DNA of 64,000 bases, taken from positions 186,001 through 250,000 of the forward strand of contig NZ_BAGC01000044.1 of assembly GCF_000308655.1 (NCBI RefSeq). The letters are read 5' to 3'. The stretch is from Nocardia niigatensis NBRC 100131 (GTDB taxonomy: Bacteria > Actinomycetota > Actinomycetes > Mycobacteriales > Mycobacteriaceae). The number at the start of each line of letters is the position of its first letter. Positions within the stretch are counted from its first letter, which is position 1. Below the pieces are notes generated by a model. It was not told where the DNA came from, made no database searches, and was given only the letters and a program-made list of their open reading frames with translations. Positions 10,574-57,199 of the stretch are shown here, one piece after another. The translations under genes were made by a program, and so were the position numbers.

Positions 10574-10632
10574 GGTGACGCTACCGCCGTCGGGTCCGGG
10601 CGGCGGACGGTTCGTCAACGGAGGTGGTCCGC

Positions 10633-12423: not shown

Positions 12424-12537
12424 GAGACCTCGGCCACAACTCCGCTGCCTGCGCTTGCTAGGGTTAGCACCGCACTGGATCTCGATGTTGCGGTCCCGGC
12501 CGACTCGTCCGGCAGGCGATCGCGGAAGGTTGTACCC

Positions 12538-14199: not shown

Positions 14200-14200
14200 C

Positions 14201-14248
14201 CAAACTCGTTCGTGCCCCGCCACTTCAGTGGTGGGGCACGAAAGTTTG
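14201..14248 (+). terminator. Terminator after the second fadD gene
   Basis: Near-perfect hairpin: CAAACT..TTCGTGCCCC..CCAC, loop TTCA, GTGG..GGGGCACGAA..AGTTTG. It starts 2 bp after the stop codon. Confidence 0.85.
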
Positions 14249-14276
14249 CCTGGAATTCGATCGCTATTATCAGCGC

Positions 14277-20418: not shown

Positions 20419-20447
20419 GCCGGAGCGGGCTCCGCACAAGGGATGTA

Positions 20448-20475
20448 GCCCAACCCCGCACGAAAAGGGTTGGGC
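20448..20475. terminator. Hairpin terminator between convergent genes
   Basis: GCCCAACCC (20448-20456) pairs with GGGTTGGGC (20467-20475), loop CGCACGAAAA. It lies between the diguanylate cyclase gene and the minus-strand gene ending at 20505. Confidence 0.75.
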
Positions 20476-20504
20476 CGACTGTCCTCTACGTGAGCGGCGT
20501 CGCG

Positions 20505-21245: not shown

Positions 21246-21485
21246 GGGGCACTCCGGGCGGACGGGGCGGACATCTGCGTGCCAAGAGCATGCACCATGG
21301 CACCGACAAATCCACATCCGGAGAACGCACATGGTCACCGCCCGAGAGCCAGTGAACCGTCAGCAATTCCTATAGGTGCGGCCCACAGAGCATGGCCGGC
21401 GCTGGTGATCCTAAGCGTCCGCCCCTGTCCCCACGCAACTTTCGAGGTCGCGCGACCGCACCGGCGTCCGATATGCGCGTATCGA

Positions 21486-21896
21486 TCAGAGTTGCTCGAC
21501 CCCGCGCAGCACACACCGCACGGTCTGCGGCCGCGAGACCGGATCCAGCAGCGTCTCCGTGGTGAAGTCCTGGGTCGAGCCCGGCGCCACCAGCACCTCG
21601 GTGCGTGTCCGTTCCAGATCCGTGGACTCCGGCGACATGAAACTGATCACCACCAGATACCTGTGCTCCACCACATCCCGATTGCTCACCACGGCCGTCG
21701 CCTGCCAGCCCGCCGAGGTGCCCGCACAGGCGGTGACGAAGGCGCTGCGCTGCATCTCGCCGCCATCGGTCGACGCCATCTCGGTGTTGGACTGGTGTGC
21801 GTGCGCGGAATCGGTGTGGCCGGCGTGGGCGCATCCGGTGAGCAGCGCCGCACATCCCGAGACGACACCGACGAGACCTCGGCCGGGGGTGATCAT
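21486..21896 (-). CDS. Small lipoprotein
   Basis: 136 residues with a lipoprotein signal: basic start MITPGRGLVG, hydrophobic VVSGCAALL and lipobox LLTGC with the acylated Cys at residue 22. A His-rich segment follows directly (AHAGHTDSAHAHQS), then a beta-rich domain of about 80 residues with two cysteines (TACAGT and VRCVLR). ATG 21896 is chosen as the start that places the lipobox correctly; the frame is open to 21977. The His-rich tail after the lipid anchor hints at metal binding. It is divergent from the molybdopterin oxidoreductase gene. No family recognised. Confidence 0.7.
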   Translation of the reverse strand: MITPGRGLVGVVSGCAALLTGCAHAGHTDSAHAHQSNTEMASTDGGEMQRSAFVTACAGTSAGWQATAVVSNRDVVEHRYLVVISFMSPESTDLERTRTEVLVAPGSTQDFTTETLLDPVSRPQTVRCVLRGVEQL

Positions 21897-22078
21897 GAAT
21901 CTCCCATTCCACCGCGCACTTCCGCCCCCGCAATCCTGTTGCGGCTGATTAGCCGCGCGCCGAGAGTACCCCAGCACGACCGCGTGTCGTCACATGACGG
22001 CATAGGCGTGTCGCCGTCCGAAATGGGCCATACGCTCGCATTTCGCGCACTCACAGGCACCTGCCTACGATCAGTGAG

Positions 22079-24043
22079 GTGAAGGTTCTCGGCGCATGCC
22101 CGCTCGACTGCCCGGATGCCTGCTCCTGGGTGGTGGACGTCCAGGACGGCCGGGCCACCGGCCTGCGCGGCAACAAGGAGCATCCGGTCACCCGGGGCGC
22201 GCTGTGTGTCAAGGTGAACCGCTACCTCGAACAGGTCCACTCCCCTGAACGCCTCACCCGACCGCTGCGCCGTGTCGGCCGCAAGGGCGAGGGCCGCTTC
22301 GAGCCGATCACCTGGGACGAGGCGCTCGACGAGATCGCCGGCAAGCTCACCGGCATCATCGCCGAATACGGCGGCGAGGCGATCTGGCCGTTCCACGGCA
22401 CCGGCAGCCTCGGCTACCTCCAAGGGCTGGAGGGCTTTTCCGGCAGGCGATTCTTCAACGCGCTCGGCGCCTCCCTGCACGACCCGGCCATCTGCTCGAT
22501 CGCGGGCAGCACGGGATTGAAATACACCCTGGGCACCTCGGGCGGCATGGACCCGGAGGACCTCGCGAAGTCGAAGCTGATCCTGTTGTGGGGCACCAAT
22601 CCGCTCAGCTCGGGCCATCATGTCTGGAAGTTCATCCAGGACAGCGGCGCGTACACGATCGCCATCGATCCGGTGCGCACCCGCACCGCCGAACGCTGCG
22701 ACGAGCATCTGGCCCCGCTGCCCGGCACCGATGCCGCGCTGGCGCTGGGCCTCATGCACGTGATCGTCGGGTTGGGGGCCGAGGACACCGAGTTCCTGGC
22801 CGCCCATACCGCGGGCTGGCCCGAATTCCGTGACCGCATCGCGGAGTACCCGCCGGAGCGGGTCGCCGAGATCACCGGGCTGCCGGTGGAGCGCATCGTG
22901 GCCCTCGGCGAGCGCATCGCCCGCACCCGGCCCACCGCCATTCGCGCCTCGCAGGGCATGCAGCGGCACGCGGGCGGCGGTATGGCGCTGCGCACCCTGG
23001 CCTGCCTGCCCGGCGTCACCGGCGACTGGGCGATTCCCGGTGGCGGACTGCACTATTCGACCAGCGGGCACTTCCGGCTCGATACGCCCGCGCTGATGCG
23101 CCTGGATCTGCTGCCGCATCCGGTCCGGACGCTGTCCATGACCCGGATGGGCGAGGAGCTGCTGGAGACCGACGGGCCGCCGGTGCAGGCGCTGTTCGTG
23201 ATCGCGGCGAATCCGGTGGGCTCCAATCCCGATCAGCGACGGGTGATCGAGGGGCTCTCGCGCGAGGACCTGTTCACCGTTGTCCTGGAACATTTTCCGA
23301 CCGACACGGTCGACTACGCCGATATCGTCCTCCCGGCCACCATGCAGCCCGAGCACCTCGATGTGCTGGCCGCGTACGGCAATCTCTATCTGGTCTGGAA
23401 CGAACCGGCCGTGACCCCGCCCGGTGAATGCCTGCCCACCACCGAGACCTTCCGCCGGCTGGCCCGGCGCATGGGGCTGACCGAACCAGCGCTCTACGAC
23501 TCGGATGAGGACCTGGCGAACCAGCTGCTGAAACAGTACGACGTCGACCGCCTGCGCGCCGAGGGCTTCCTGAAGATCGATCCGGGCCCCGTGCCCGCGA
23601 ACAGGCTACGGTTCGTCTCGGACCGCGCGGCCAAGGCGGGCCACGATCCCCTGGCCGGATACACCCCGCCCGCCGATCCGGGCGACGGCCTGGTGCTCAT
23701 CTCCGCGGCGTCGCACTACTTCCTTAACACGACCTTCGGCATCGATCCCGAATTACGCAGGCGCGCAGGCGTACCGACGATCACCGTTCATCCGGAGGAC
23801 GCGGCGGCACGCGGCATCGCGGACGGTGATCCGGTCACCGTCCACAACGACCGCGGTTCCTTCGAAGCCACCGCCGAGATCTCCGACCGAGTCCGCCGGG
23901 GCGTCGCCGCGACCACGAAGGGGCGCTGGGCCAAGCACTCCGGCGGCTCGACGGTGAACGCCACGGTCGCGGAACGCGACTCGGACTTCGGTGGCGGCGC
24001 CGTCTTCCACGACAACCGGGTATCGATCACCCTGCGCCGCTGA
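22079..24043 (+). CDS. Molybdopterin oxidoreductase, DMSO-reductase family
   Basis: 654 residues. The N-terminus has the [4Fe-4S] ligand set CPLDCPDAC with a fourth Cys in GALCVK, then the molybdopterin-binding domain (FHGTGSLGYLQ, LILLWGTNPLSSGHH, IDPVRTRTAERCDEHLAPLPGTD) and the C-terminal beta-barrel MoCo-binding domain (NTTFGIDPELRRRAG, ISDRVRRGVAATT). The arrangement is that of the cytoplasmic anaerobic-reductase/formate-dehydrogenase-like group with no Tat signal. GTG 22079 directly precedes the cysteine motif with only 6 residues before it. No partner subunits are adjacent, so the electron acceptor is unknown. Confidence 0.92.
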   Translation: MKVLGACPLDCPDACSWVVDVQDGRATGLRGNKEHPVTRGALCVKVNRYLEQVHSPERLTRPLRRVGRKGEGRFEPITWDEALDEIAGKLTGIIAEYGGEAIWPFHGTGSLGYLQGLEGFSGRRFFNALGASLHDPAICSIAGSTGLKYTLGTSGGMDPEDLAKSKLILLWGTNPLSSGHHVWKFIQDSGAYTIAIDPVRTRTAERCDEHLAPLPGTDAALALGLMHVIVGLGAEDTEFLAAHTAGWPEFRDRIAEYPPERVAEITGLPVERIVALGERIARTRPTAIRASQGMQRHAGGGMALRTLACLPGVTGDWAIPGGGLHYSTSGHFRLDTPALMRLDLLPHPVRTLSMTRMGEELLETDGPPVQALFVIAANPVGSNPDQRRVIEGLSREDLFTVVLEHFPTDTVDYADIVLPATMQPEHLDVLAAYGNLYLVWNEPAVTPPGECLPTTETFRRLARRMGLTEPALYDSDEDLANQLLKQYDVDRLRAEGFLKIDPGPVPANRLRFVSDRAAKAGHDPLAGYTPPADPGDGLVLISAASHYFLNTTFGIDPELRRRAGVPTITVHPEDAAARGIADGDPVTVHNDRGSFEATAEISDRVRRGVAATTKGRWAKHSGGSTVNATVAERDSDFGGGAVFHDNRVSITLRR

Positions 24044-24055
24044 GCGCCGGGTCGC

Positions 24056-24946
24056 TCAGGAGTTCAGCGTCTCCAGCACTCGCCGGGCCTGGTAGTCCGC
24101 GCCGAGCTGGTTGGGGTGGAACGGGACGGCGAGGCCGAGGGGGCTGCCGGAGAAGGGCAGGAGACCTTCGACCCAGCGGGTGCCGACAGGCTTGCAGGCG
24201 TCGTGGCCGGAGCTGCCGTCGTAGGTGTCGACGAAGTCGACGCCGGTCTCGTCGGCGACCCGGGCGAGCATGTCGTGCATCTCGATCAGCTTCTGCCCCA
24301 GCCAGATCGCGTCGGGGTCGGAGATGGGGATCTCGGGCCAGCAGCCGCCGTCGAGGCCGATGCCCTCGAAGTAGTCGAGGAGCAGGATGCGGGCGTGCGG
24401 GGCGCGCTCGCGAATGCCGGCGATGGCGGCGGCCACGCGGGGTTCGGTGCGGGCGATGTTCTGCGACATCCGGTCGACGCCGTTCACCACCATCTCGTTC
24501 AGGCAGGGGCTGACGGCAGGGTCGGCGGTGATGCAGTCGGAGACGGTTCCGGCCAGATCCGCGTCGTTGCCGCCGATTTCGAGGGTGACCAGGTCGGTGG
24601 TCTCGGTCAGCCGGTCGAACTGCGGGGCGTTGTCGCCGAGCACGGTGTGCTGCGGCCGGGTCATGTCGGCGGTGACCGCGCCACCGCAGGTGGCGTCGCG
24701 GAACACCGGCACGGCCAGGGCCGCGGCGACCTGCTTGGCGTAGTCGTGGACGCTCTGCGCGCAGCCGGCCGCGGTGAAGGCGGTGGTGAGCTGGCTCAGG
24801 GTGGCGTCGGCGGCCCAGGAATCACCCAGGGCCACATACTCGTTGACGGCCGGGGTATCGGCGGTGGCCGGGTCTGCCTGGGCGGCGACGGCCGGAATGA
24901 TGGCGGCTAGGGCGGCGACGGTCAGCAGTACACGCGAGGTCTTCAT
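24056..24946 (-). CDS. Secreted SGNH/GDSL hydrolase
   Basis: 296 residues. Signal peptide MKTSRVLLTVAALAAIIPAV with AQA|DP cleavage near residue 24. SGNH family blocks: GDSW (nucleophile Ser43), a Gly in the CGGAVTADM stretch, LEIGGNDADL (block III Asn) and the C-terminal PFHPNQLGADYQ (block V His). It resembles actinobacterial secreted GDSL lipases/esterases with six or more Cys forming disulphides (Cys in GCAQS, TCGGA, DCITA, PCLNE, GCWPE, ACKPV). It should hydrolyse ester bonds outside the cell. The convergent gap to the molybdopterin gene is only 12 bp. Confidence 0.9.
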   Translation of the reverse strand: MKTSRVLLTVAALAAIIPAVAAQADPATADTPAVNEYVALGDSWAADATLSQLTTAFTAAGCAQSVHDYAKQVAAALAVPVFRDATCGGAVTADMTRPQHTVLGDNAPQFDRLTETTDLVTLEIGGNDADLAGTVSDCITADPAVSPCLNEMVVNGVDRMSQNIARTEPRVAAAIAGIRERAPHARILLLDYFEGIGLDGGCWPEIPISDPDAIWLGQKLIEMHDMLARVADETGVDFVDTYDGSSGHDACKPVGTRWVEGLLPFSGSPLGLAVPFHPNQLGADYQARRVLETLNS

Positions 24947-25074
24947 GTCTGTTCTCCCCTGGACCAGCCCAATACCGAATGTCGGACTGTATTCAGTGCG
25001 GAACCTAACAGCTGCACGACCGCGGCGCGCGGCGAATTGAAACAATCTTCGGTCGCAACGTTTCCGGCCTCGGC

Positions 25075-27627
25075 TCAGACCCGATCCACCGACTCCAACC
25101 GCTCGTGTTCCGGCGACTCCACCCGCTCGTATCCCAGCAGGACATCGTGCGCGACCTCACCATCGGCGACCGTGACCCGGCTGAACACCGCAGGATAACC
25201 CCGGGCCATCACGGTGTAGCGTCCCTCGGTCAGATCCGGCACCACATAGCGTCCGGCGTCGTCGGTGCGGGTGATGGCGATCAGGTCCCCCGCCTCGTCC
25301 AGCACCGTGATCTGGGCATCGGGCACGCCGAGACCGCGCTCATTGCACGCCGACCCCGCCAACACCGCGCGCGGCGCCAATTCGATGTCGTGACGCAGCA
25401 TTCCGCTGTCCGGCACGGTCAGGGTGACCGCGGAGGGACGCATGTGGTCCGCCACCGCGACCAGCGTGTAGGTGCCGGCCAGCACGCCGCGGCAGGTGAA
25501 GTCGCCGTCCACGGTGGTAACCGCCGAGCCGACCACATCGCCGAACGCGTCGGTGAGGGTGATGGTCGCATCGCCCAGCGGCGCACCGCGTCCCGCCGAC
25601 CGCACCACGCCCGACACCTCACCGGAGCCGAGCAACGCCACGTCCAGGCTGAGCGGGCGGCTGCCGACCGAAATGGTCACGGCGGCGGGCTGATACCCGA
25701 ACGCCGACACGATCAGCACATAGCCGCCCGCCCGCGGCACGCCGATGACATAGCCGCCGTCGGCTGCGCCGACGGCGCGCGACACCTGCCGCCCACGCTG
25801 GTCGATGAGGGTGAGCACGGTATCGGGCACCGACTGCCCGTCCTCGCGGTGCACGCAGCCCGAGACCGACAGTCCCGACGGCTGGACGAAGTGGAACTCG
25901 GGCTCCGGCTCGGGCTCCGGCTCGATGTCGGGCTCCGGCTCGATGTCGGGCTCCGGCTCGATGTCGGGCTCAGGCTCGGCCACCTCAGCCACCACCCGCA
26001 CCGGAACATCCTGCAGCGGAATCTCTTTCATGAACATGAGCACGAACGCCGCTACCACCGCCACCGCGGCCGCCACTAAGAACACTCCGCCCATGGCATG
26101 GGTGAACCCGGTCAGGATGGGTACGCGCAGTTGCTCCGGCAGGGCCGCGATGCCGCTGGTATTGCTCTGGATCCGGCCCAGCTGCCCGGCATCGAATCCC
26201 GGCGGTAGCTGTCCGCCGAAGGCAGCCATGATCTTGCGGGGCAGCAGGTTGAACAGAATGGTCAGGAAGACCGCGACACCGAGCGTGCCGCCCATCTGCC
26301 GGAAGAAGGTGGCCGACGCGGTGGAGACACCCATATCGGTGCGCGGCCCGGCGTTCTGCGCCGCGATGACGAGCGTCTGCATGCACCCGCCCAGGCCGAA
26401 ACCGATGACGCCGCAGTACAGCAGCGGCTGCCACAGCGGACTGTCGTAGTGCACCAGCGCGAACAGCACCGACCCGGCGCCGATCACCAGCGAGCCGAGC
26501 ACCGGCAGCATCTTGTACCGCCCGGTGAACTTGGTGACGAGCCCGGACAATTGCGCGCCCAGCATGATGCCCATCACCAGTGGCAGCATGAAAAGCCCGG
26601 AGCGCGTGGGCGAATACCCACGCACCACCTGGAAGTAGAGCGGCACCAGCACGATCGCGCCGAACATCGCCACGCCGACGATGAACCCGCCCACGATGGC
26701 GATGCTGAAGGTGCGATTCCCGAACAGCCGCAGCGGAATCAGCGCGCTGTCCTTCATGAGGAATTCGACAACCAGGAACAGCACCAGCCCGGCCGCCGCG
26801 ATGGCATAGCCGAGCAGGGCGCGATGTGAACTCCAGCCCCAGTCCCGGCCCTGCTGGGCGACGATGAGCAGCGGAACCGTGCCCGCCGCAAGGGTTATCG
26901 CCCCCAGCCAGTCGGTGCGGTGGCGGTGCCGCTCGAAGGGTACGTCCAGCACCTTGCCGACGACCAGGATCGCCAGCACGCCGATCGGTACGTTCACCAG
27001 GAACACCCAGCGCCAGCCGGAGAGTCCGAGAATGTGGTCGGCATTGGAGAAGAAGCCGCCCAGCACCGGGCCGAGTACCGTGGCGATGCCGAAGACCATC
27101 ATGAAATAGCCCTGGTACTTGACTCTTTCGCGGGGCGGCACGATATCGCCGATGATGGTGAAGGCCAACGACATGAGCCCGCCGGCGCCGACGCCCTGCA
27201 GCGCACGGAATCCCGCGAGCTGATACATGGAGGTGGCGAAGGTGCAGGCCACCGAGCCGATCACGAAGACGCCGATGGCGATGAGGTAGCAGGGTTTTCG
27301 GCCGTAGATGTCGGCGAGCTTGCCGTAGAGCGGCGTCGAGATGGTGGCGGTGATGAGATAGGCCGTGGTGGCCCAGGCCTGCTTGTCGAACCCGTGCAGG
27401 CTGTTGGCGATGCGGACGATCGCCACGCTCACGATGTTCTGGTCCAGCGCCGCCAGGAAGACGCCCAGCAGCAGGCCGGACAGGATGGTCATGATCTGGC
27501 GGTGCGACAGCGTGCTCTCGATCGGCGGTGTTCTCTCGATCGGCGCGTTGGCGGCCGGGGCGACCCGGACCGGCGCCGCCACCCGCGACGGGATGGACAC
27601 CGATGTCTGGGTGGAGCTATTAGTCAT
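25075..27627 (-). CDS. MFS (DHA2) exporter fused to three Ig-like carboxypeptidase-regulatory domains
   Basis: 850 residues. Residues 45-545 are a 14-helix drug:H+ antiporter: the DHA2 motif LDQNIVSVAI in helix 1, GKLADIYGRKPCY (motif A), and the motif C region GVLGPVLGGFF. After helix 14 comes an acidic EPEPDI repeat linker (about 552-580) and then three copies of an 80-residue beta sandwich of the carboxypeptidase regulatory-like fold (SVSGCVHREDGQSVPDTVLT, EVSGVVRSAGRGAPLGDA, AVLAGSACNERGLGVPDA, each with a DGGY/DGDFT/DAGRY turn). Such a tail on an MFS pump is unusual. ATG 27627 starts the conserved part; the gene is monocistronic. Confidence 0.88.
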   Translation of the reverse strand: MTNSSTQTSVSIPSRVAAPVRVAPAANAPIERTPPIESTLSHRQIMTILSGLLLGVFLAALDQNIVSVAIVRIANSLHGFDKQAWATTAYLITATISTPLYGKLADIYGRKPCYLIAIGVFVIGSVACTFATSMYQLAGFRALQGVGAGGLMSLAFTIIGDIVPPRERVKYQGYFMMVFGIATVLGPVLGGFFSNADHILGLSGWRWVFLVNVPIGVLAILVVGKVLDVPFERHRHRTDWLGAITLAAGTVPLLIVAQQGRDWGWSSHRALLGYAIAAAGLVLFLVVEFLMKDSALIPLRLFGNRTFSIAIVGGFIVGVAMFGAIVLVPLYFQVVRGYSPTRSGLFMLPLVMGIMLGAQLSGLVTKFTGRYKMLPVLGSLVIGAGSVLFALVHYDSPLWQPLLYCGVIGFGLGGCMQTLVIAAQNAGPRTDMGVSTASATFFRQMGGTLGVAVFLTILFNLLPRKIMAAFGGQLPPGFDAGQLGRIQSNTSGIAALPEQLRVPILTGFTHAMGGVFLVAAAVAVVAAFVLMFMKEIPLQDVPVRVVAEVAEPEPDIEPEPDIEPEPDIEPEPEPEPEFHFVQPSGLSVSGCVHREDGQSVPDTVLTLIDQRGRQVSRAVGAADGGYVIGVPRAGGYVLIVSAFGYQPAAVTISVGSRPLSLDVALLGSGEVSGVVRSAGRGAPLGDATITLTDAFGDVVGSAVTTVDGDFTCRGVLAGTYTLVAVADHMRPSAVTLTVPDSGMLRHDIELAPRAVLAGSACNERGLGVPDAQITVLDEAGDLIAITRTDDAGRYVVPDLTEGRYTVMARGYPAVFSRVTVADGEVAHDVLLGYERVESPEHERLESVDRV
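25921..25974 (-). repeat. Three tandem 18-bp units encoding EPEPDI
   Basis: CTCGATGTCGGGCTCCGG occurs at 25921-25938 and 25939-25956, with a one-base variant at 25957-25974. In the minus-strand reading it encodes EPEPDI repeats that link the MFS and Ig-like parts. The near-identical DNA suggests recent slippage expansion. Confidence 0.9.
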
Positions 27628-41394: not shown

Positions 41395-41961
41395 TCAGCC
41401 GGCCGTCGAGATGGTCGGAAGCCAGCGGCGCCGGACTGCCGGCACCGGTTCGAGGACGTCCGCCGCAGCGGTGACCACGAGGAGCTCGACCAGGCTGTGG
41501 CGGCGGATCTCGCCGGATAGGGTGCCCAGCCACCGGCCTTTCCTGGTCCCCGCGTCATGATCGGCGACAACCAGCATCGCGGCACCGGTCGCACCGGCGA
41601 CACCGAGGATGGCTTTGGCGAGTGGACCGGGTACGGCACGCCGGACAATACGATGAACCCCAGACGCTGCCGCCCTTTCCTCGGCGGTCCGGAGGATCTC
41701 GTCGACCGGAGTACTGCCGTGGATGAGGTAGGCCTCGCGCTTCAGAACGTCGGCCGCGCCGCAGAGGTCACGACGACGCCGGACGTCGTAGGCGCTGACG
41801 AGCACCAGCGGCGCCCCGGTCATGACGGCGACACTCGCCGCTCTGTCGACGGCCGCGTCGGAGAGTTCGGAACCGTCGACACCGACCACGACGGGTCCGG
41901 ACGCGGGCGCGGGCGGCTCTCGATGACCAGACCTGTTCTCGTAGAGCGTATTTCGCGTCAT
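41395..41961 (-). CDS. Universal stress protein
   Basis: 188 residues, UspA fold. The core begins VVVGVDGSELSDAAVDRAAS and ends LVELLVVTAAADVLEP, with ADHDAGTRKGRWLGTLSGEIRR in place of the ATP-binding G-2x-G-9x-G(S/T) motif, which is altered (GTLSGE). So ATP binding is uncertain. ATG 41961 gives a 30-residue N-terminal tail; the frame opens further to 42039. It lies directly downstream of the two-component system genes on the same strand, across an 83-bp gap, a known arrangement for dormancy/hypoxia-like regulons in this order (inference). Confidence 0.8.
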   Translation of the reverse strand: MTRNTLYENRSGHREPPAPASGPVVVGVDGSELSDAAVDRAASVAVMTGAPLVLVSAYDVRRRRDLCGAADVLKREAYLIHGSTPVDEILRTAEERAAASGVHRIVRRAVPGPLAKAILGVAGATGAAMLVVADHDAGTRKGRWLGTLSGEIRRHSLVELLVVTAAADVLEPVPAVRRRWLPTISTAG

Positions 41962-42044
41962 ATAGTCATTCTTCGCGAGACCACCCAGGCGCCGCGACGA
42001 CCGGCCGGTTGAACTCGTTGCCCACCCAACGGTGGACAACGCCG

Positions 42045-42668
42045 TCAGCTACCGAGCAGGCCGCGCGCCATCGCGGTGGTCACCGCCGCGGTGCGGTCGG
42101 AGACCTCGAGCTTGCCGAAGATGCGCAACAAATGTGTCTTCACGGTCGCTTCGCCGATATGCAGTTCGCGGCCGATGTCCGCGTTCGTCTCGCCCAACGC
42201 CACCCGGGCGAGCACCTGCACTTCGCGGGCCGACAATGTGGGCTGAGCGGGTCGGCGCAACCGGTTGACCAAACGGTCGGCGACCGTGGGCGCGAGTACG
42301 GTCTCACCCCGCGCCGCCGTGCGGATCGCGTTCGCCAGCTCGAGGCTCGAGGCGTCCTTCAGGAGATACCCCGAGGCGCCGGCCTCCACCGCGCGCAGAA
42401 TGTCGCTCTCGGTTTCGTATGTGGTAACCACGACGATCTTGGTTTCGGGGAGAATCGAGAGGATCCGCCCGATCGCCTCCACACCATCGCCGCCGGGCAT
42501 GCGCAAATCCATGAGCACCACGTCCGGCCGCACCACCGCGGCCATCGCCACGGCTTCGGTGCCGGAACCGGCTTCGCCACCGACGGTCAGATCGGGCTCG
42601 GCTTGGAGCATGCCGCGCAGACCCTCACGAACCATGGGATGGTCATCGACGAGCATCACCGTGATCAT
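42045..42668 (-). CDS. NarL/LuxR-family response regulator
   Basis: 207 residues. Receiver domain with phospho-acceptor Asp54 (VVLMDLRMPGGDG), acidic pocket MLVDDHP and Lys in YLLKDASS. C-terminal LuxR helix-turn-helix LSAREVQVLARVALGETNAD, IGRELHIGEATVKTHLLRIF. It overlaps the histidine kinase gene by 4 bp (ATGA), so the pair is translated together. Probable target: its own promoter palindrome at 43913-43942 and the stress gene downstream (inference). Confidence 0.95.
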   Translation of the reverse strand: MITVMLVDDHPMVREGLRGMLQAEPDLTVGGEAGSGTEAVAMAAVVRPDVVLMDLRMPGGDGVEAIGRILSILPETKIVVVTTYETESDILRAVEAGASGYLLKDASSLELANAIRTAARGETVLAPTVADRLVNRLRRPAQPTLSAREVQVLARVALGETNADIGRELHIGEATVKTHLLRIFGKLEVSDRTAAVTTAMARGLLGS

Positions 42669-43885
42669 GCGGGAATCTCGATTTCCACGGTGGTTCCGCG
42701 ACCCGGGCGACTCGACACCGCCATCGTGCCCCCAACCTGCTCAGCCCGCTCCCGCATCCCACGGAGACCGAAGCCGGTCGTTATGCGGTCGAAAGCGAAT
42801 CCGGTCCCATCGTCGGTCACCGACAGTCGAACCCCGGTGTCGGTGCGCAGCATGTCCACGGTCACCGTCGATGCCTCGGCGTGCTTGCGCACATTCGCGA
42901 ACGCCTCCTGCGCCACCCGCAACAGCACCACCTCACTCGCGGTGTCGAGGACGGGGAACGCCTCGGCCGCATTGACCGTCACCGCGATACCGGCGCCTTC
43001 GGCAAGCCGGTCACCCTGGCGCCGAACAGAATCGACGAGTGAGCCGTCGGCCAGCACCGAGGGTGTCAGTTCGACAACCATCGAGCGCGCCTCGGCGAGA
43101 TTCTCCCGCGCGGTGTCCCTGATGAGTCCGATGTGCCGGCGAGCGGCCTCCGGGTGCGCATCGACCTCCGACTCGACCGCCTGCGCGAGGGTGACGATGC
43201 TGGTGAATCCCTGCGCCAAGGTGTCGTGGATTTCCCGCGCCAGCCGTGCTCTTTCGTCCGATCGACCCGCAACACGCGACAGCCGGGCGGTTTCCGCCCG
43301 GCTTTGCGCCAGCTCATCGAGCAGCACCGCTTGCTGTTCGCCGCGTTCGACCGCTACCCCGATCGCGCTCCCGATCATGGGGCTGAGCACCAACCCCAGG
43401 AGCGAGATCGACAGCGCCAGTGGCACATCCGAACCGTGTACCCCCTGGGTCGCCAGGGCTGTCAGAGGGATGATCGCGCTGACCGTAGTACCCATCGCGA
43501 GCGCGGCGTTGAGTGGCAACTCCAGATAAATGAGCGAATAGACCACCGGAAGGGCGGCGGCCGCCCCGGCGGAGAGATAGATGGCGGTGGCGAACAGGGC
43601 CACCACGCCGAGCGTGAATCCCGCTGTTCGGCAGTTCAACTCGCGTGTCGAGTAGTACTCGGCACGTCCGACGCGGACCTGTCCGAACACCAGGGTCAGG
43701 ACCACGATGCCGGCCAACATGGCGCAGGAACCGAGTTGACGGGCTGGAGATTGGCTGTGGATGAGGAAAACGACGACGTCGGCCACGAAACATCCGACGA
43801 CGACGAACCCGCCCCAGAGCCGGTACCAGGGTCCGGGCGGTGGGCCGTACATGGCCTTGATACCGATCACCGGCGCACCGTTCAT
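42665..43885 (-). CDS. Sensor histidine kinase of the NarL-partner (HisKA_3) type
   Basis: 406 residues. N-terminal half: about 5 membrane helices (GFVVVGCFVADVVVFLI, LGSCAMLAGIVVLTLVFG, TLGVVALFATAIYLSAG and more) with no extracellular loop large enough for a ligand domain, so it likely senses membrane or intramembrane signals. The dimerisation segment has the phospho-site His220 in ARLAREIHDTLAQGF. The ATPase domain shows the N box AFANVRKHA, the G1 box DDGTGFA and GFGLRGMRERAEQVGG. ATG 43885 places 27 bp between the palindrome and the gene. Partner: the overlapping response regulator. Confidence 0.93.
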   Translation of the reverse strand: MNGAPVIGIKAMYGPPPGPWYRLWGGFVVVGCFVADVVVFLIHSQSPARQLGSCAMLAGIVVLTLVFGQVRVGRAEYYSTRELNCRTAGFTLGVVALFATAIYLSAGAAAALPVVYSLIYLELPLNAALAMGTTVSAIIPLTALATQGVHGSDVPLALSISLLGLVLSPMIGSAIGVAVERGEQQAVLLDELAQSRAETARLSRVAGRSDERARLAREIHDTLAQGFTSIVTLAQAVESEVDAHPEAARRHIGLIRDTARENLAEARSMVVELTPSVLADGSLVDSVRRQGDRLAEGAGIAVTVNAAEAFPVLDTASEVVLLRVAQEAFANVRKHAEASTVTVDMLRTDTGVRLSVTDDGTGFAFDRITTGFGLRGMRERAEQVGGTMAVSSRPGRGTTVEIEIPA

Positions 43886-43912
43886 CCCTCGAGGTTATCG
43901 GAGGTGAACGGC

Positions 43913-43942
43913 CCGGGTGTCCACCGATCGGTGGACACCCGG
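43913..43942. promoter_or_regulatory. 30-bp perfect palindrome before the kinase gene
   Basis: CCGGGTGTCCACCGA (43913-43927) followed directly by its exact reverse complement (to 43942), 28 bp before the kinase ATG. A LuxR-type response regulator usually binds such inverted repeats, so autoregulation is likely. It could also form an mRNA hairpin in the leader. Confidence 0.6.
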
Positions 43943-44124
43943 CCCGGGTCAGCGGTCGATCGACCGATAGCCGGGCACTATATCTCCGACCCACCTGCAG
44001 AATTGTGAGATTTCGGTTCAACCCATCCGATTGGGCAGGTTGTTCATCCGTGGATACACGAAAGATTGCAACGAGTGCGCATTGTTCGCCAGGTAGAACC
44101 TGTACTAGTTTAGGGTAACTTTTA

Positions 44125-44184
44125 GTCACGCGAATCGCGTGACCTTCGTCACAGTTGCAGTCGGTCGAATGCCGTGTGTAGAGT
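44125..44184 (+). promoter_or_regulatory. Palindrome and promoter of the biosynthesis remnant locus
   Basis: GTCACGCGA-A-TCGCGTGAC (44125-44143) is a perfect 19-bp inverted repeat. Just downstream TTGCAG (44155-44160), 18 nt, TAGAGT (44179-44184) forms a reasonable sigma-A type promoter reading toward the carrier protein gene. The palindrome touches the -35 side, so an activator or repressor site is plausible. The surrounding 43.95-44.33 kb gap is AT-richer than the rest of the window and holds no gene. Confidence 0.5.
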
Positions 44185-44328
44185 CCGCTAGGCGCCGGAA
44201 ATTGACACTGAAACAAGTCATGTAATTGGGGGATGAAAGGCGACTCGTTTACGCCTTTGATGGCGCGAATAAATCTATGGATAATACGGCTTCAATTCAG
44301 CCGGGGGGTGGGCTCGATCGAAATTGAT

Positions 44329-44607
44329 ATGGCTACTGATTTGATTACTATCGACGATGTCCGGCTCATGGTTCACGAAGGGCTCAAGGGGAGCCTCTCG
44401 CCTGACTACGACATTTCTGAGACCACTCGTATCGAAGACCTGGGACTGACAAGCCTGCAGGTCGCTGAAATTATCATGAGAATCGAGGACGAGCTCGATA
44501 TCGACCTCGATTCCACACTGCTCGCTGCGGTTCAAACCGTGGGCGAATTACTTGTAGCAGTGGACCTTTCTGCCTGTCACCAAGAACAACGAGGCATCAG
44601 AATTTGA
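44329..44607 (+). CDS. Acyl carrier protein
   Basis: 92-residue carrier protein. The 4'-phosphopantetheine site is Ser42 in EDLGLTSLQVAEIIMRIED, followed by ELDIDLDSTLLAAVQTVGELL, the standard helix II-IV pattern. ATG 44329 is chosen; GTG 44308 and ATG 44233 extend it in frame with weaker ribosome sites. The gene is AT-richer than its neighbours. A TTG start of the acyl-AMP ligase overlaps its stop (TTGA), so the two are coupled: the ligase would load an acyl group onto this carrier. The ligase is truncated, so the pathway is probably dead. Confidence 0.85.
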   Translation: MATDLITIDDVRLMVHEGLKGSLSPDYDISETTRIEDLGLTSLQVAEIIMRIEDELDIDLDSTLLAAVQTVGELLVAVDLSACHQEQRGIRI

Positions 44608-45119
44608 ACAGGATCGACGTCGAAGCCCAAGGTCCGGACCAGTTCTGGATTCGCCTTTTTGAAACGTCACTCACTTACGAGCATCGACTGTATTTCTGGG
44701 AGAGTGGCGCTTACCGGAGTTACACGCGAGCGGAGTTGATGGCCGGTGGCCGCTCGGTGGCACGCGAGCTGATCGATCGGGGCGTCCGGCGTGGCGACAT
44801 CGCGGCAGTTGTCCTGAACAACTCGGCCCAGGCGGTCTCGACGCTGATGGGGTGCTGGCTCGCCGGTGTCACGCTGGCTTCGCTGCCCGAACGGGCAGTC
44901 GGCAGCGATGTCGGCACCTATAGGGAGCAGATCGAGGCGATTTGCGCCCAGCTGCGGCCGGCGGCCGCATTCTGCGCGGCGGACGTCCTGGGCAGCCTCG
45001 GACCCGAGACCATCAGCGCAGCCACGTTCACCGGCTTCGACGAGGTGCTCGCCGAGCCTGCCGACCGCGCGGTCGAGGCCCGGTTCCTCGACTACGACCA
45101 GCCGGTCTTCATCCAGTAG
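44604..45119 (+). pseudogene. Acyl-AMP ligase, 5' fragment
   Basis: 171 codons of an adenylate-forming enzyme of the fatty acyl-AMP ligase/CoA ligase type. RSYTRAELMAGGRSVARELI, VLNNSAQAVSTLMGCWLAGV and the RFLDYDQPVFIQ segment are the N-terminal conserved blocks; full members run about 570 residues and continue VFIQYSSGSTG. Here the frame meets a TAG immediately after FIQ, and the following DNA is from a different gene family (MMPL), so the region from the P-loop to the C-domain has been deleted. TTG 44604 overlaps the carrier protein stop. Confidence 0.85.
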
Positions 45120-45463
45120 GCGCTGTCGCCCTGGGAATCGGGCAGACCGGCCGGGTCGTCACGGCTGCGGCATTGCTGATGGCGATCGTCTTCGCCGCAC
45201 TGACGGCATCCTCGGTCGCGATCATGCGCATGCTGGGTCTGGGGCTGGCGCTGGCGGTGATTCTCGATACCACAGTGATTCGCATGCTGCTGATGCCCTC
45301 GTTCATGAAATTGATGGGCCCTGCGAACTGGTGGGCGCCGCGGCCGCTGCGGGCATTCCATGGCCGCTTCGGCCTCGACAGAGACGTGGATCCGGTGCCG
45401 CACTCCGAGCGCAGCAGCGGCGACGAGCGTATCGATGCAAATTCAGTTGGAGGACGATCGTGA
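45120..45463 (+). pseudogene. MMPL transporter, 3' fragment
   Basis: Frame-2 open reading (codons ending at 45463) encodes about 110 residues of the C-terminal end of an MMPL/RND lipid exporter: ALGIGQTGRVVTAAALLMAI, then MLGLGLALAVILDTTVIRML and the diagnostic LMGPANWWAPRPLRAFHGRFGLD. Full MmpL proteins have about 950 residues. It has no start of its own and is joined to the acyl-AMP ligase fragment at about 45,115-45,125. Its stop overlaps the next start (GTGA), an original operon coupling that has survived. Confidence 0.85.
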
Positions 45464-46557
45464 ACGTTGTGATAGTTGGCGCCGGCTATGCGGGGACAAT
45501 CGCCGCGAACCGGTTGAAGAAGAAGTCGCCGAACGTGGCGATAACCGTGGTCAACCCACGATCGGAATTCATCGAGCGGGTCCGCCTGCACGAGGAGATC
45601 GCCGGCACCGGCGCCGCGGCGACACCGCTCGCGGCGATGCTCTCCGACGGCATCGCCCTCCGGACCGGCTCCGTGCGGAAGGTCGGCGACGGCGTGGTCA
45701 CACTCGACGACGGCGAAACCCTCTCCTACGAATACCTGTTTCTCGCGGTCGGCAGCACGGTCACGCCGATCCCGGGCGCAACGCCGGTAGGCACCTGGGA
45801 GGGTGCGGTCCGGGCTCGGGAGTGCCTGGCCGCGCTACCGGCCGCGGGGACCGTCACCGTCATCGGTGGTGGACTGACCGGCATCGAGACAGCCTCCGAA
45901 CTGGCCGCGGCCCGGCCGGATCTGCGCGTGCGCCTGGTCGCCGAGACGGTCGGAGCGAGTCTGTCCGCCGGTGCCCGCCGGCGGGTCCACCAGGTGCTGG
46001 AACAGTTGAACGTCACGATCGTGAACGGCTCGGTCGCCGCGGTCGAGCCGGGCGGCGTGGTCCGGCTCGAATCCGGTACCGAATTCGCCTCCGACCTCAC
46101 CCTGTGGGCCGTGGTGTCCGGGATTCCCGATCTCGCCGCCAGCAGCGGACTCACGGTCAACGATGAGGGGCGCGCCGTGGTCGACCAGTATCTGCGCAGC
46201 GTCGACGATCAGCAGATCTTCGTGATCGGTGACTGCGCGGCCGTACCGGGCGCCCGATTGTGCTGTGCCACCGCCTCACCGCAGGGTGCCCACGCGGCCG
46301 ACACGCTCGCGCGGATCCTGGCGGACAAGAAGCCGAAGCCGTATTCGATGGGCTACACCGGCCAGGCCCTGAGCCTGGGCCGGAAGAATGGCCTGGTACA
46401 GGCCAGCAGCCGCGACGGCCAGGTCCGCTGGCTCTACATCAGCGGCCGGATCGCCGCGGTGTCGAAGGAATACATCTCCCGGTACGCGAAATTCGGCTCG
46501 CGCACCGCGACCTATGCGTGGCTGCCCGGCAAGCGCACTCGAACGCAAAGGTCGTGA
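45460..46557 (+). CDS. FAD/NAD(P)-binding oxidoreductase, NDH-2-like
   Basis: 365 residues. Two dinucleotide folds: NVVIVGAGYAGTIAANRLKK (FAD) and TVIGGGLTGIETASELA (NADH), then the C-terminal FVIGDCAAVPGARL flavin block. Overall it fits the type II NADH dehydrogenase/rubredoxin-reductase-like superfamily. GTG 45460 with TTGGAGGA 7 nt upstream overlaps the MMPL fragment's stop, so it belonged to the same operon. A role in redox tailoring or electron supply for lipid biosynthesis is inferred. Reading frame is intact, which is notable as the two genes before it and the one after it are broken. Confidence 0.88.
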   Translation: MNVVIVGAGYAGTIAANRLKKKSPNVAITVVNPRSEFIERVRLHEEIAGTGAAATPLAAMLSDGIALRTGSVRKVGDGVVTLDDGETLSYEYLFLAVGSTVTPIPGATPVGTWEGAVRARECLAALPAAGTVTVIGGGLTGIETASELAAARPDLRVRLVAETVGASLSAGARRRVHQVLEQLNVTIVNGSVAAVEPGGVVRLESGTEFASDLTLWAVVSGIPDLAASSGLTVNDEGRAVVDQYLRSVDDQQIFVIGDCAAVPGARLCCATASPQGAHAADTLARILADKKPKPYSMGYTGQALSLGRKNGLVQASSRDGQVRWLYISGRIAAVSKEYISRYAKFGSRTATYAWLPGKRTRTQRS

Positions 46558-46618
46558 CGAATCGGCGAAATGCATGGCGTACAGCGAATTCCGGGCTCTG
46601 TCGCAAGGAGATGTTTCA

Positions 46619-48129
46619 GTGGTTGATCGCGAAGTTGTCATCGTCGGTGCGGGGTTCCCCGGCATCGGCCTCGGCATCCAGTTACGCAAGGCGGGCTTCA
46701 CCGACTTCGCGATCCTGGAGGCCGCCGACGATCTCGGCGGCGTCTGGCACCACAACAGATACCCGGGAGTCGCTGTCGACATTCCCTCGACGACATACTC
46801 CTATTCCTACGAGCCGAATCCGTCCTGGTCGCGATTGTTCGCGCCCGGCGACGAACTCGCGGCCTACGCCAAGCGTTGCGCCGCCAAGTACGGCGTCGTG
46901 AACCACATCCGGCTCAACACCCGCGTCGAGGCGGCGACATACGACGAGCGTCACCACCAGTGGAACGTACGGACGGGCAGGGGACCGCTCACGGCACGCT
47001 TCCTGGTCTCGGCGGTGGGGCCGCTCGACCAGCCGAAGTACCCGGACATTCCGGGGCTGGACACCTTCGCCGGGCGAACCGTGCACACCGCGCGCTGGGA
47101 CCCGGATCTCGAGTTGCGTGGCAAGCGGGTCGCCGTCATCGGAAGCGGCGCCTCCGCGCTGCAGCTGGTTCCCGAGATCGCGCCCGAGGTGAGACGACTC
47201 CTCGCCTTCCAGCGGACACCGATCTGGGTGATCCCGAAACCGAACAGCACCATCCCACCGCCGATGCGGCGATTGTTCGAACACGCCCCGGTCGTCCAAC
47301 GTGTACTGCGGATGGCGACCTCGCTGGCGGCCGAACTGGTGATGACCGCCGGCATCGCGTACCACATGCGCATACCGCTGTTCGTTCGCAGCGTCGAGAA
47401 GCTGTGCCTGTGGCACCTCCGGAGGCAGGTTGCCGACCCCGAGGTCCGCGCGCGGCTGACACCGCGGTACGGCCTCGGGTGCAAGCGCCCTTCCTTCTCC
47501 AACACCTACCTGCGAACCTTCAACCGCGACAACGTCATCCTCATTACCGACCGCATTCTGCGCATCGTCCCCGAGGGCATCGTCACCGCGACGGCCGACC
47601 GATCCTCGGGCGTGGTGACCGAGACGCTGCACGAGGTCGAGATCCTCTTGCTCGCAACGGGTTCAAGACGATGCAACTAGGAGTGGTTCCGCCGTTCCCG
47701 CTCCACGGCACAGACGGCATCGATGTCGGGCAGTGGTGGGATGAGAACCGCTACCAGAACTACGAGGGCATCTCGAGTCCGCTGGCGCCCAATTTCTGGC
47801 TGATGAGCGGGCCGTGGTCCGCCGCCGGGGCGTCCTGGTTCAGCGTGATCGAGTCCGGGAGCCGGCACATCGTGCGCTGCCTCCGCGAGGCACGGCGGCG
47901 TGGGGCCACCCAGGTGGTCGTCAAGCAAGAGCCCCACGACGCCTACATGCGGAGCATGCGCGAGAAGGTCCGGCACACCTCGTTCGCACAGCCCAGCTGC
48001 TCGCACGCCAACAGTTACTACTTCGACCGGCACGGTGAAGCACCCTTCATGCGCCCCATCTCGGGACCCGCGCTCGAGGTCGCCAGCCGCACTTTCAACC
48101 TCGGTCACTACCGGTACGAGCGGATCTGA
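46619..48129 (+). pseudogene. Baeyer-Villiger-type flavin monooxygenase with a frameshift
   Basis: Two overlapping frames together read as one 500-residue flavin monooxygenase: REVVIVGAGFPGIGLGIQLR (FAD site), GGVWHHNRYPGVAVDIPS, then GPLDQPKYPDIPGLDTFAGR and KRVAVIGSGASALQLVPEI (NADPH site). At about 47,659 the frame ends ATGSRRCN-stop, while the +2 frame continues GFKTMQLGVV...PISGPALEVASRTFNLGHYRYERI to 48129. One base missing from the ATG(F)K codon explains it. GTG 46619 follows AAGGAG. Real frameshift or sequence error cannot be told apart here. Confidence 0.85.
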
Positions 48130-48210: not shown

Positions 48211-48215
48211 TGTAG

Positions 48216-48289
48216 TAGCGGGGACAGGATTTGAACCTGCGACCTCTGGGTTATGAGCCCAGCGAGCTACCGAGCTGCTCCACCCCGCG
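48216..48289 (-). tRNA. tRNA-fMet (initiator), anticodon CAU, copy 1
   Basis: 74 nt, CCA not encoded. The anticodon stem has three consecutive G:C pairs (GGG/CCC) and C1 is unpaired to U72, both hallmarks of the initiator. T-loop GGTTCAAATCC and D-loop AGCAGCTCGGTAGCT are normal. A TAATGT -10-like element lies just upstream at 48302-48307 (minus strand). Near identical to the copy at 57126. Confidence 0.95.
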
Positions 48290-53958: not shown

Positions 53959-56900
53959 ATGTACCGCGTGTTCCTGAGTCACTCCAGGCGGGACAACGCG
54001 GCCGCACAGGCCCTCTTCCGATGGCTGAACGGCGTGGATCCCAGCCTGAAAGGCCAGATCTTCCTGGACGTCAATCCCGAGACCGGGATCGCGCCGGGGG
54101 TGCGCTGGAAGTCCGAACTGTCGCGCGCGGTGGATCACTGCGAGGCGGTCGTCTGCCTGATCTCCAGGAACTGGGAGCACTCGCACGAGTGCCTCACCGA
54201 AGCCCGGCTCGCGGAATCGCTCAACAAACGCGTCTTCTGCGCCCGGGTCGACCCCGCCGCGCAGGGCCGGCAAGTGCGCGAGTGGCAGATCTGCGACCTG
54301 TTCCCCAACGGTGACAATGGTGTCACCACGGTCAATGACGACAATGGGGAACCGGTCGACCTCGCCACCGAGGGGCTGGCGCGACTACTGCGTGGGTTGC
54401 ACGATGCCGGAATCGGCGCCGAACACTTCCCGTTGCCGCCGCCGGACGAGAGCACACGAGCGCCGTATCGCGGCTGGCAGCCGATGGACGATGCCGACGC
54501 TGCGGTGTTCTTCGGCCGCGACTGCCAGATCCTGCGCGGCATGGACACGCTGCGCGGGATGCGCACCGCAGGCGTGGAAGGGCTGTTCGTGATCCTCGGC
54601 CCCTCCGGTGTCGGCAAGTCGTCGTTCCTGCGCGCCGGGCTGCTGCCCCGGCTCCGCCGCGATCCCGGGAACTTCCTGGTGAGCGAGATCGTGCGTCCCG
54701 ACCGCGATGCCTTGGCCGGTGATCGGGGTTTGGCCCAAGCGATTTGGCAGTTGCGAGCACAAGCCGGTCCGGGTGGTCCAGCGCTCGGCGAGGTCAAAAC
54801 CGCCTGCCGCGAAGCCGACATCGCCCGGCTCACCTCGTGGATCCACGAGGCCCAACGGGAAGCGACCGATGACGGCATGGCGCCGACAGTGGTGTTGCCC
54901 ATCGACCAGGGCGAGGAACTGTTCTCCGCGGAGGCCGGCACAGAAGCCACCACCTTCCTCTCGTTGCTGGGCGGACTGCTGCAGACCGACGCGATCGGCG
55001 AACTACCCCTGATCGCGGCGATGACGATTCGGGCCGATCGCTACGAATCGCTCCAGAACGCCCCCGAATTGCTGGCGGTACACACCCGGGAGTTCGGCGA
55101 CCTCAAACCGATGCCGGTCACCGAGTACAAGGACGTGATCACCGGACCGGCCGCCCGCGCCACCGCGGCCGGACGACGGCTGAACCTGGACGCCGCACTG
55201 GTGGCCCGGCTACTCACCGACACGACCGGGGGTGCGGACAGCCTGCCGCTACTCGCTCTGGTGCTGTCACGGCTGTACCTCGACTACGGCAGCACCGGGC
55301 GACTCACCCTGGCCAACTACGAGGCCATGGGTGGAATGGAGCACATCGTCGAAGCCGAGATCAACACGCTGCTGGCCAGCGAACCCGCCCGGCGCGCCCA
55401 GCAGCCGGACATATTGCGCAGCGCGTTCATCCCCTGGCTGGCCACCATCGATCACGAAACCGACTCCCCCTCGAGACGAATCGCGCACTGGGACGAACTT
55501 CCACCGGAGAGCCGGACACTGATCGACGCGATGGTCGCCCGGCGACTGCTCGTGAAGGACGAGCGCGAGGGCGAGACCGTCGTCGAAGTGGCCTTGGAAA
55601 GCCTACTGCGGCAATGGGAATCGCTGGCCCAGTAGCTGGCCGAACACGCACAGGATCTCGAGGCCGCCGACAGCCTGGACCGCGCGGCCGCCGACTGGGA
55701 GCTCAACCAGCGCGGTCCGGAATGGCTGTTCGAAGGCGTGCGCCTGGCCGCGGCCGAGCAACTCGCCGACTCCCCCATGTTCCGCGAACGGGTCTGTCGC
55801 GCAAACGAATTCCTGCGGGCATCGCGGCACCACGAGGACGCCCAGGCCGAGGCCGAGCGACAACGGCAGGAGAACGAGTTACGCAATGCGCAGGAGCGCC
55901 GAGAAGAGGCCGAGGCGCACGCGGCGGCCCTGCGTTCGCGCGCCCGGGTCCTGCGCGCACTGCTCGCCGTGACGTTGACGGTGGCGCTGGTGGCCGTCAC
56001 CGCATTCGTGGTGGCAGCCGTGTCCACTACGAATGCCAACGCCAAGCGCCACGAGGCCGAAGCCCTCAACCGTGACGCGCTGGCCGGGCGGCTGACCTCA
56101 CAGGTACAGGCGATGCTGGCCGGCGGACGGCCTGGCACCGAACTCGAAGTGGTGACCAAAGCACTCGCGGCACACCGGCTTTCAGAGAAGGAAGGCATCG
56201 GCGCCCTGCTGAGCGTCTTGCAGAAGAAGCCGCGGACTCGTGGACAGCTCGACCGGGCGACCGTATGGCAACGCGATCGATGTCGGCGACACACGCGTGA
56301 ACAGCATGGCTCTGAGCCCTGACGGACAAACGCTCGCGACGGCCACCGAGGACAAGACCGTCCAGCTCTGGGATTGGCGACACGGGAAGCCGACCGGGAC
56401 GCCGCTGAGTGGCCATGAGTTCGGGGTGGAGACGGTGGCTTTCAGCGACGACGGTCGCACGCTCTATTCCCGCAGCGTCGACTCGGTGCGAATCTGGGAA
56501 ACAGCCACACGGCGCTTACTCGGCACGGTGAAGACGAGGGCGTCCACCACCGCGATGGCGATCAGCCCCGATGGGCGCCGGATCGCGATCGCCGACTACA
56601 ACTACATCGAGGAGTTCAACGCCAAGAGCGCCGAACCCACGGGCGCGATGATCATAAGCCGCGGCCTGCAAGCGAACGCCCTCGCTTACAGCGGCGACGG
56701 TCGCTACCTGGTCTCCGTCGGCGGCGACAACACACTGCGACTCTGGGATGTCGACTCGAAGACACAGATCGGCGAAGCGGTCAACATCGCGGCGACAGGT
56801 AGCGGCGACGAGATCCAATTCAGCCAGGACCAGCGACACATCTTCATAACAACGTATCCCGCCGTCGATCCGGACGGTGGTTCACGCGTGCACGGCGGAG

Positions 56901-57052
56901 GGGTCTGGACTGTACCCGCTCCCGCCGCCTGGGCGGACGAGCTGTGCACCAAGCTGGTCACGAACCCGAGCCAGGAGGAATGGAAGAAGTGGGTCTCCTC
57001 CGACCAGAGCATGGCCGCCGGATTGTGCCCGGGCAAACGTGAACCGCCCTGA
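53959..57052 (+). pseudogene. TIR-nSTAND-WD40 protein, broken by an amber codon and a frameshift
   Basis: Reads as one long gene. TIR domain 1-150 (FLSHSRRDNAAAQ, catalytic Glu within SHECLTEARLAES). nSTAND NTPase about 190-560: Walker A LGPSGVGKSSF (near residue 215), Walker B TVVLPIDQGEELF. At 55,633 a TAG interrupts the frame after REWESLAQ-like QWESLAQ, yet the same frame continues LAEHAQDLEAADSLDRAA to a membrane helix (LRALLAVTLTVALVAVTAFV). At about 56,215-56,240 the frame shifts to a WD40 part (DGQTLATATEDKTVQLWDW, SGDGRYLVSVGGDNTLRLWD) ending WADELCTKL...EEWKKWVS...CPG, the usual STAND C-end. Only 4-5 blades remain. Abortive-infection role inferred. Confidence 0.88.
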
Positions 57053-57121: not shown

Positions 57122-57125
57122 TTAG

Positions 57126-57199
57126 TAGCGGGGACAGGATTTGAACCTGCGACCTCTGGGTTATGAGCCCAGCGAGCTACCGAGCTGCTCCACCCCGCG
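57126..57199 (-). tRNA. tRNA-fMet (initiator), anticodon CAU, copy 2
   Basis: 74 nt with the same initiator hallmarks as the copy at 48216: GGG/CCC anticodon stem, C1 unpaired with U72, CCA not encoded. Upstream TAATGT-type -10 at 57212-57217 (minus strand) preceded by TTGGAG 18 nt away. Confidence 0.95.

What the first reader, a model, noticed from the sequence alone, without database searches (positions are those of the whole stretch)
44604..45463. Acyl-AMP ligase gene spliced to an MMPL gene by deletion
Seen: ligase reading stops exactly before its P-loop and, from about 45,120, the sequence codes for the last 110 residues of an MMPL exporter in another frame. The upstream carrier protein and the coupled overlaps (TTGA, GTGA) show one former operon. 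Inference: a deletion, probably of several kilobases including synthase genes, removed the core of a lipid/polyketide-type cluster. The lost genes may define an undescribed lipid pathway retained in relatives.
Basis: partly seen in the sequence, partly recalled or inferred. Interest (0 to 1): 0.7.

Follow-up and report, generated by a model that had tools for sequence, protein, structure and literature searches.

The report
Deleted core of a lipid operon
In this Nocardia a deletion has joined the front of a fatty-acid-activating enzyme gene to the tail of a lipid-exporter gene, so that lipid operon is dead; a sister species lost the same genes with a different break, and a Rhodococcus still carries what looks like a whole version.

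Summary
A 171-codon acyl-AMP ligase fragment (44604-45119) ends right before the P-loop that 12 of 12 inspected relatives have there, and from 45120 the DNA codes for the last 112 residues of an MMPL transporter in another frame. Carrier and ligase overlap as TTGA, MMPL tail and FAD oxidoreductase as GTGA. A sister genome (G130, one contig) has the same locus but keeps only the last 62 MMPL residues and lost carrier and ligase: another break at the same place, so loss of the core looks biological. No orphan MMPL half was seen elsewhere in the assembly; a stray ligase remainder is not excluded. Rhodococcus sp. HM1 carries an intact operon with these parts: oxidoreductase, carrier, ligase (TTG start, sister in the ligase tree), second AMP-ligase, 306-aa and 167-aa proteins, MMPL; the equivalent gap is 6,255 bp. 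By that model no polyketide synthase was lost. Weak points: gene order differs and the short MMPL tail does not pair with HM1's in a tree. The downstream flavin monooxygenase is also frameshifted here, intact in the sister. An ordinary decayed lipid operon; the intact HM1 operon is the lead worth following.

The parts
42045..42668 (-). LuxR-type response regulator, conserved neighbour
   Evidence: Pfam PF00072/PF00196; 88% identical in G130
42665..43885 (-). Sensor histidine kinase, divergent from the operon
   Evidence: Pfam PF07730/PF02518; 82% in G130, 72% in G062
43886..44180 (.). Shared upstream region; similarity to G130 runs from the kinase gene to about here and then stops
   Evidence: pairwise alignment; inner part scores 58 against a maximum of 39 in 300 shuffles
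44329..44607 (+). Acyl/peptidyl carrier protein, apparently intact (an upstream ATG at 44233 is also possible)
   Evidence: PF00550; 48% to the HM1 carrier over 71 aa, 41% over 75 aa in the reverse search
44604..45119 (+). N-terminal stub of an acyl-AMP ligase (FAAL type), cut before its P-loop
   Evidence: PF00501 16-99/384; 42% to the HM1 ligase; tree
45117..45119 (.). Deletion joint
   Evidence: ligase similarity ends at the FIQ codons, 45116; MMPL DNA similarity starts at 45120
45120..45463 (+). C-terminal tail of an MMPL transporter, in another frame than the ligase
   Evidence: PF03176 244-311/333; 61% to the HM1 MMPL tail; last part kept in G130
45460..46557 (+). FAD/NAD(P) oxidoreductase, intact, under purifying selection
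   Evidence: PF07992; 86% in G130, dN/dS about 0.18
46619..48129 (+). Flavin monooxygenase (FMO/Baeyer-Villiger like), broken by a net one-base frameshift near 47,662; intact and inverted in G130
   Evidence: ORFs; PF13738/PF00743; comparison with the intact 510-aa copy

Best explanation
A former lipid operon (carrier protein, fatty acyl-AMP ligase, unknown middle genes, MMPL exporter, oxidoreductase) lost its core by a deletion, probably of about 6 kb, with breakpoints inside the ligase and the MMPL gene. The ligase stub lacks its ATP-binding loop and the MMPL tail lacks most of the transporter, so neither should work and the product is no longer made or exported by this route. Inferred original function, by analogy with FAAL-carrier and MMPL systems and with the HM1 operon: the ligase adenylates a fatty acid and loads it on the carrier; a second AMP-ligase and a possible Cys-His-Asp acyl-transferring enzyme (306 aa) join it to another unit; MMPL exports the lipid. 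Shown: the break, the sister's different break, the intact HM1 operon. Inferred: that HM1 shows what was lost, the size of the deletion, and every chemical step.
For: Exact edges. Sister G130 (one contig, 8.0 Mb): same regulator and kinase, the same order MMPL tail then oxidoreductase, but carrier, ligase and more of MMPL gone. Own genome: 25 MMPL matches that fall, by position, on 12 loci matched twice plus this tail, so no orphan N-terminal half. HM1: oxidoreductase 57%, carrier 48%, ligase 42%, MMPL tail 61%, all in one run of genes, the ligase starting with TTG directly behind the carrier, nearly as here. Ligase tree: window and HM1 are sisters, 96/95.
Against: No reads were available, so the joint itself is unproved. 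HM1 has the oxidoreductase before the carrier, not after MMPL. 61% for the MMPL tail is not distinctive: MMPLs of the genus reach up to 63%, and in a poorly resolved tree of 22 tails a branch of support 94/95 separates HM1's tail from the 14 rows that hold the window's. The carrier's best bit score is to L055, not HM1 (61.2 against 54.7), though identity is highest with HM1. Oxidoreductases closer than HM1's (for example 75% in Rhodococcus maanshanensis) show no carrier, ligase or MMPL in the DNA held. No second genome with the full set was found. One of the 12 MMPL loci (contig 80) has a TGA inside its second match.
Confidence: 0.83

Rival explanations
1. Assembly artefact: the draft assembler joined two distant halves.
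For: Draft of 114 contigs; no reads to check. A ligase remainder elsewhere is not excluded: the 92 ligase-like matches of the own genome include partial ones at 24-49% identity.
Against: No sizeable repeat at the joint; no leftover MMPL half; the one-contig sister also lacks the core at this very place.
Confidence: 0.07
2. Fusion of two unrelated loci by rearrangement, not a deletion inside one operon.
For: The MMPL tail does not pair with HM1's; the conserved block sits between different flanks in window and G130, and the monooxygenase is inverted between them, so rearrangements happen here.
Against: MMPL tail and oxidoreductase overlap by GTGA here and keep the same order in G130; ligase, carrier, oxidoreductase and an MMPL share one operon in HM1.
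Confidence: 0.1
3. A reduced but working operon: the stubs are kept as reading frames that couple translation to the oxidoreductase.
For: Carrier and oxidoreductase are intact; dN/dS of the MMPL tail is 0.42, below 1 as a point estimate; no further stops in the stubs.
Against: G130 has no carrier or ligase and keeps the oxidoreductase; the bootstrap range of the tail is 0.18-1.06.
Confidence: 0.05

Closest known systems
Stand-alone FAAL beside its carrier protein (jamaicamide JamA as example; review PMC11837247, passages seen)
   Same: FAAL gene beside its carrier protein gene
   Different: Ligase truncated here; no desaturase gene between carrier and ligase, unlike clusters in the same genus and order (PF00487 found in L045 and L055)
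Trehalose polyphleate locus of mycobacteria (Pks, PE, PapA3, FadD23, MmpL10; PMC10465359, abstract and passages seen)
   Same: FAAL plus MMPL surface-lipid locus; natural mutations in it occur in clinical M. abscessus isolates and make them insensitive to phages
   Different: No Pks or PapA3 in the HM1 model; product unknown; no phage data here
Rhodococcus sp. HM1 operon (L147, NZ_JALPTB010000069.1)
   Same: Oxidoreductase, carrier, TTG-started ligase and MMPL in one operon
   Different: Intact; gene order permuted; 42-61% identity; no match to the monooxygenase in the 21 kb held

Membership tests
Fatty acyl-AMP ligase (FAAL) | AMP-binding domain with P-loop | tested here: not met
   Only profile positions 16-99 of 384 remain; stop right before the P-loop. 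A fragment of such a ligase, not a working one.
Fatty acyl-AMP ligase (FAAL) | Nearest relatives are FAALs with a neighbouring carrier | tested here: met
   Of 14 ligase loci fetched, 12 (L044-L055) show a carrier upstream of the ligase; L056 gave a ligase match only and L057 none at E <= 1e-4. The HM1 ligase matches FAAL models among its best NCBIfam hits, but all 25 shown are below their cut-offs.
Fatty acyl-AMP ligase (FAAL) | FAAL-specific insertion that hinders CoA use (recalled) | not testable with these tools
   That region is deleted here
MMPL/RND transporter | Whole transporter with two MMPL domains, about 700-800 aa | tested here: not met
   112-residue tail only
Carrier-desaturase-ligase cluster (as in L044-L055) | Desaturase gene between carrier and ligase | tested here: not met
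   Carrier and ligase overlap directly; no desaturase in the HM1 operon either
HM1-type operon | Ligase sister to the HM1 ligase and directly behind the carrier | tested here: met
   Tree 96/95
HM1-type operon | MMPL orthologous to HM1 MMPL | tested here: inconclusive
   61% identity, matched by other MMPLs; not grouped in a poorly resolved tree
HM1-type operon | Second AMP-ligase, 306-aa and 167-aa genes | not testable with these tools

The most novel reading that the evidence does not exclude
The lost genes belong to an undescribed acyl-lipid pathway (FAAL and carrier, second acyl-adenylating enzyme, a 306-aa Cys-His-Asp enzyme without a Pfam family, a distant nucleoside-deoxyribosyltransferase-like protein, MMPL export), kept whole in Rhodococcus sp. 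HM1 and lost by different breaks at the same locus in two Nocardia species, perhaps because the surface lipid is a liability such as a phage receptor.
Probability: 0.25. Interest if true: 0.55.

Novelty: new member of a known kind. Interest (0 to 1): 0.3.

Why it matters
As a broken operon it is ordinary genome decay. It is useful because the break led to an intact Rhodococcus operon whose 306-aa and 167-aa genes match no Pfam or NCBIfam model at E <= 1e-3 and recur beside the same kind of AMP-ligase in a genome of another family, which makes a concrete pathway testable; and because two related species lost the same kind of lipid locus with different breaks.

Tried and rejected
Intact locus in the genus: the ligase was searched in 150 genomes, the window's own included; 134 have a match at E <= 1e-3, and the best-scoring others are 35-38% identical. 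In a sample of 397 genomes of the order 6 match at E <= 1e-8, the own one included, best other 39%. The oxidoreductase in 148 genomes gave G130 at 86% and next 68%. In 12 further oxidoreductase loci (L075-L086; 11 upstream side, L081 mostly downstream) no MMPL, carrier or ligase match at E <= 1e-4. A scan of genome contigs with the ligase alone found no relative. Plasmids: one weak ligase match. In two plasmid oxidoreductase neighbourhoods no carrier, ligase or MMPL gene is listed (that gene table is incomplete).

Carrier-desaturase-ligase clusters were considered as the parent type and rejected: about 1 kb between carrier and ligase, a desaturase in the two tested, ligase identity at most 39%, and separate in the tree. 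The tree kept 18 of 21 candidate loci plus window and HM1; L131, L132 and L231 fell out by length or stop. The MMPL tail tree kept 20 of 25 (L001, L002, L006, L120, L139 fell out) plus window and HM1.

Polyketide synthase as the lost core: not supported by HM1. Structure of the 306-aa protein: mean pLDDT 40, not used, no fold search made. PDB sequence search: 306-aa none, 167-aa only weak matches, best E 0.034. Pfam at E up to 5: 306-aa none; 167-aa PF05014 at 0.14 and its G373 homologue at 6.2e-4, both below the cut-off. Plasmids: neither protein matches at E <= 0.01. A first dN/dS of the MMPL tail was in the wrong frame and is replaced.

Literature: word searches of an open-access library showed no title or abstract start naming this operon among the papers listed; that is not proof of absence.

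Full report
WHERE. The window is 64 kb of contig 71 (345,789 bp) of an 8.22 Mb assembly in 114 contigs. Its genus is Nocardia: genome G034 of the same genus has its oxidoreductase match at contig 2, 246990, the same place as in Nocardia camponoti NZ_BMMW01000002.1 (L151, whose contig range puts the match start at 246990).

THE BREAK. Carrier (ending 44607), ligase (44604-45119), MMPL tail (to 45463) and FAD oxidoreductase (45460-46557) lie on one strand with TTGA and GTGA overlaps. The ligase fragment covers only the start of the AMP-binding domain (positions 16-99 of 384), the MMPL fragment only the end (244-311 of 333). The ligase reads FIQ and stops; 12 of 12 relatives read on with Y or F and SSGSxxxPKGC. 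DNA similarity to an intact MMPL begins at 45120. The two frames differ, so no fusion protein forms. The DNA across the joint is unique in the assembly.

NOT JUST AN ASSEMBLY PROBLEM. In the one-contig genome G130 the neighbouring regulator (88%), kinase (82%), oxidoreductase (86%) and monooxygenase (86%) lie together. DNA similarity covers 41,429-43,988, 45,265-46,536 and, inverted, 46,597-48,119; a pairwise alignment carries the first stretch on to about 44,180. In between G130 has no carrier or ligase match and only 62 residues of the MMPL tail. So the two genomes show different breaks at one place; one shared deletion followed by a second in G130 is not excluded. In the window's genome the 25 MMPL matches fall, by my reading of positions, on 12 loci matched twice plus this tail; the locus on contig 80 has a TGA inside its second match. 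The 92 ligase-like matches (24-49% identity) include partial ones, so a ligase remainder elsewhere cannot be excluded that way.

WHAT WAS LOST. A scan with the oxidoreductase found 140 relatives, of which 80 loci were kept. Of these 80, one holds carrier and ligase matches and two hold an MMPL match at E <= 1e-5. The one with all is Rhodococcus sp. HM1 (L147; genome G660 has the identical ligase). Its genes, behind a gene that I recognise as rpoC (recalled, no family search), read: oxidoreductase 10001-11089, carrier 11083-11373, ligase 11374-13062, second AMP-ligase (about 13143-14747), 306-aa protein, 167-aa protein, MMPL to 18474. The ligase begins with TTG, Asn directly behind the carrier stop; in the window TTG, Asn overlaps the stop. 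From the ligase edge to the MMPL tail is 6,255 bp. The ligase tree of 20 rows puts window and HM1 together (96/95). Ligases like HM1's are rare: in a sample of 401 genomes of the family 7 have a match at E <= 1e-75, of which one is HM1 itself and the next best is 49% identical.

AGAINST THE MODEL. Gene order differs. The MMPL tail identity (61%) is reached by many MMPLs of the genus, and a 22-row tree of tails does not pair window with HM1; a branch of support 94/95 sets HM1's apart. The carrier scores highest with L055, although identity is highest with HM1. Closer oxidoreductases than HM1's, such as that of Rhodococcus maanshanensis (75%), lack the operon in the DNA held.

THE MIDDLE GENES. 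The 306-aa protein has matches in 4 of 397 sampled genomes of the order, HM1 included; only G373 (44%) is a strong other one, two are weak (E 1.3e-4 and 8.4e-4). In G373, of another family, second AMP-ligase (48%), 306-aa (43%), 167-aa (43%) and a ligase of 26% identity to HM1's lie together, with no MMPL match in the 20 kb read. The two 306-aa proteins share C55 (ACVFQT), H82 (GRH) and D97 (LDPYLLH). Their order and spacing recall arylamine N-acetyltransferase or transglutaminase-like enzymes; that is recalled, and no family search confirmed it.

DECAY AROUND IT. The monooxygenase of the window carries a net one-base frameshift near 47,662, not in a run of more than three equal bases, while G130 has an intact, inverted copy. 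dN/dS between window and G130: oxidoreductase about 0.18, monooxygenase parts 0.24 and 0.19, kinase 0.23, regulator 0.15, MMPL tail 0.42 with a bootstrap range of 0.18-1.06. So the oxidoreductase seems kept for its own sake, the frameshift is recent or a sequencing error, and nothing firm can be said on the tail.

VERDICT. A deletion scar in a lipid operon: ordinary as decay, useful as a pointer to an intact and apparently uncharacterised operon in Rhodococcus. Loss of a FAAL-MMPL surface-lipid locus has a known parallel: some M. abscessus clinical isolates are phage-insensitive through mutations in trehalose polyphleate genes (PMC10465359, abstract and passages). Any such link here is speculation.

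Noticed in passing
48215-48289 and 57125-57199: Two identical tRNA-Met genes (75 of 75 bases) in the same orientation, 8.9 kb apart; the first lies about 90 bp from the end of the conserved block. Possible island borders.
   Followed up: partly
53959-57052: A TIR-nSTAND1 gene that stops at 55635, with an apparent continuation in the same frame (55738-56322) and WD40 repeats in another frame (56240-57052): looks like a broken TIR-NTPase-WD40 gene; the TIR part matches no PADLOC model.
   Followed up: partly
41429-48119 versus L073/L074: The regulator-kinase-operon block has different flanks in window and G130; in G130 a gene that looks like rpoC lies shortly before it, and in Rhodococcus HM1 one lies right before the operon.
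   Followed up: no
46619-48129 versus G130 (L074, about 971-2499): The monooxygenase gene is inverted between the two species right behind the oxidoreductase.
   Followed up: no
L120/L121 (G062), about 19427-27035 of the joined stretch: The same kinase-regulator pair (72% and 84%) lies near another MMPL gene (750 aa) with a 461-aa gene behind it; the pair may go with MMPL lipid loci more widely.
   Followed up: partly
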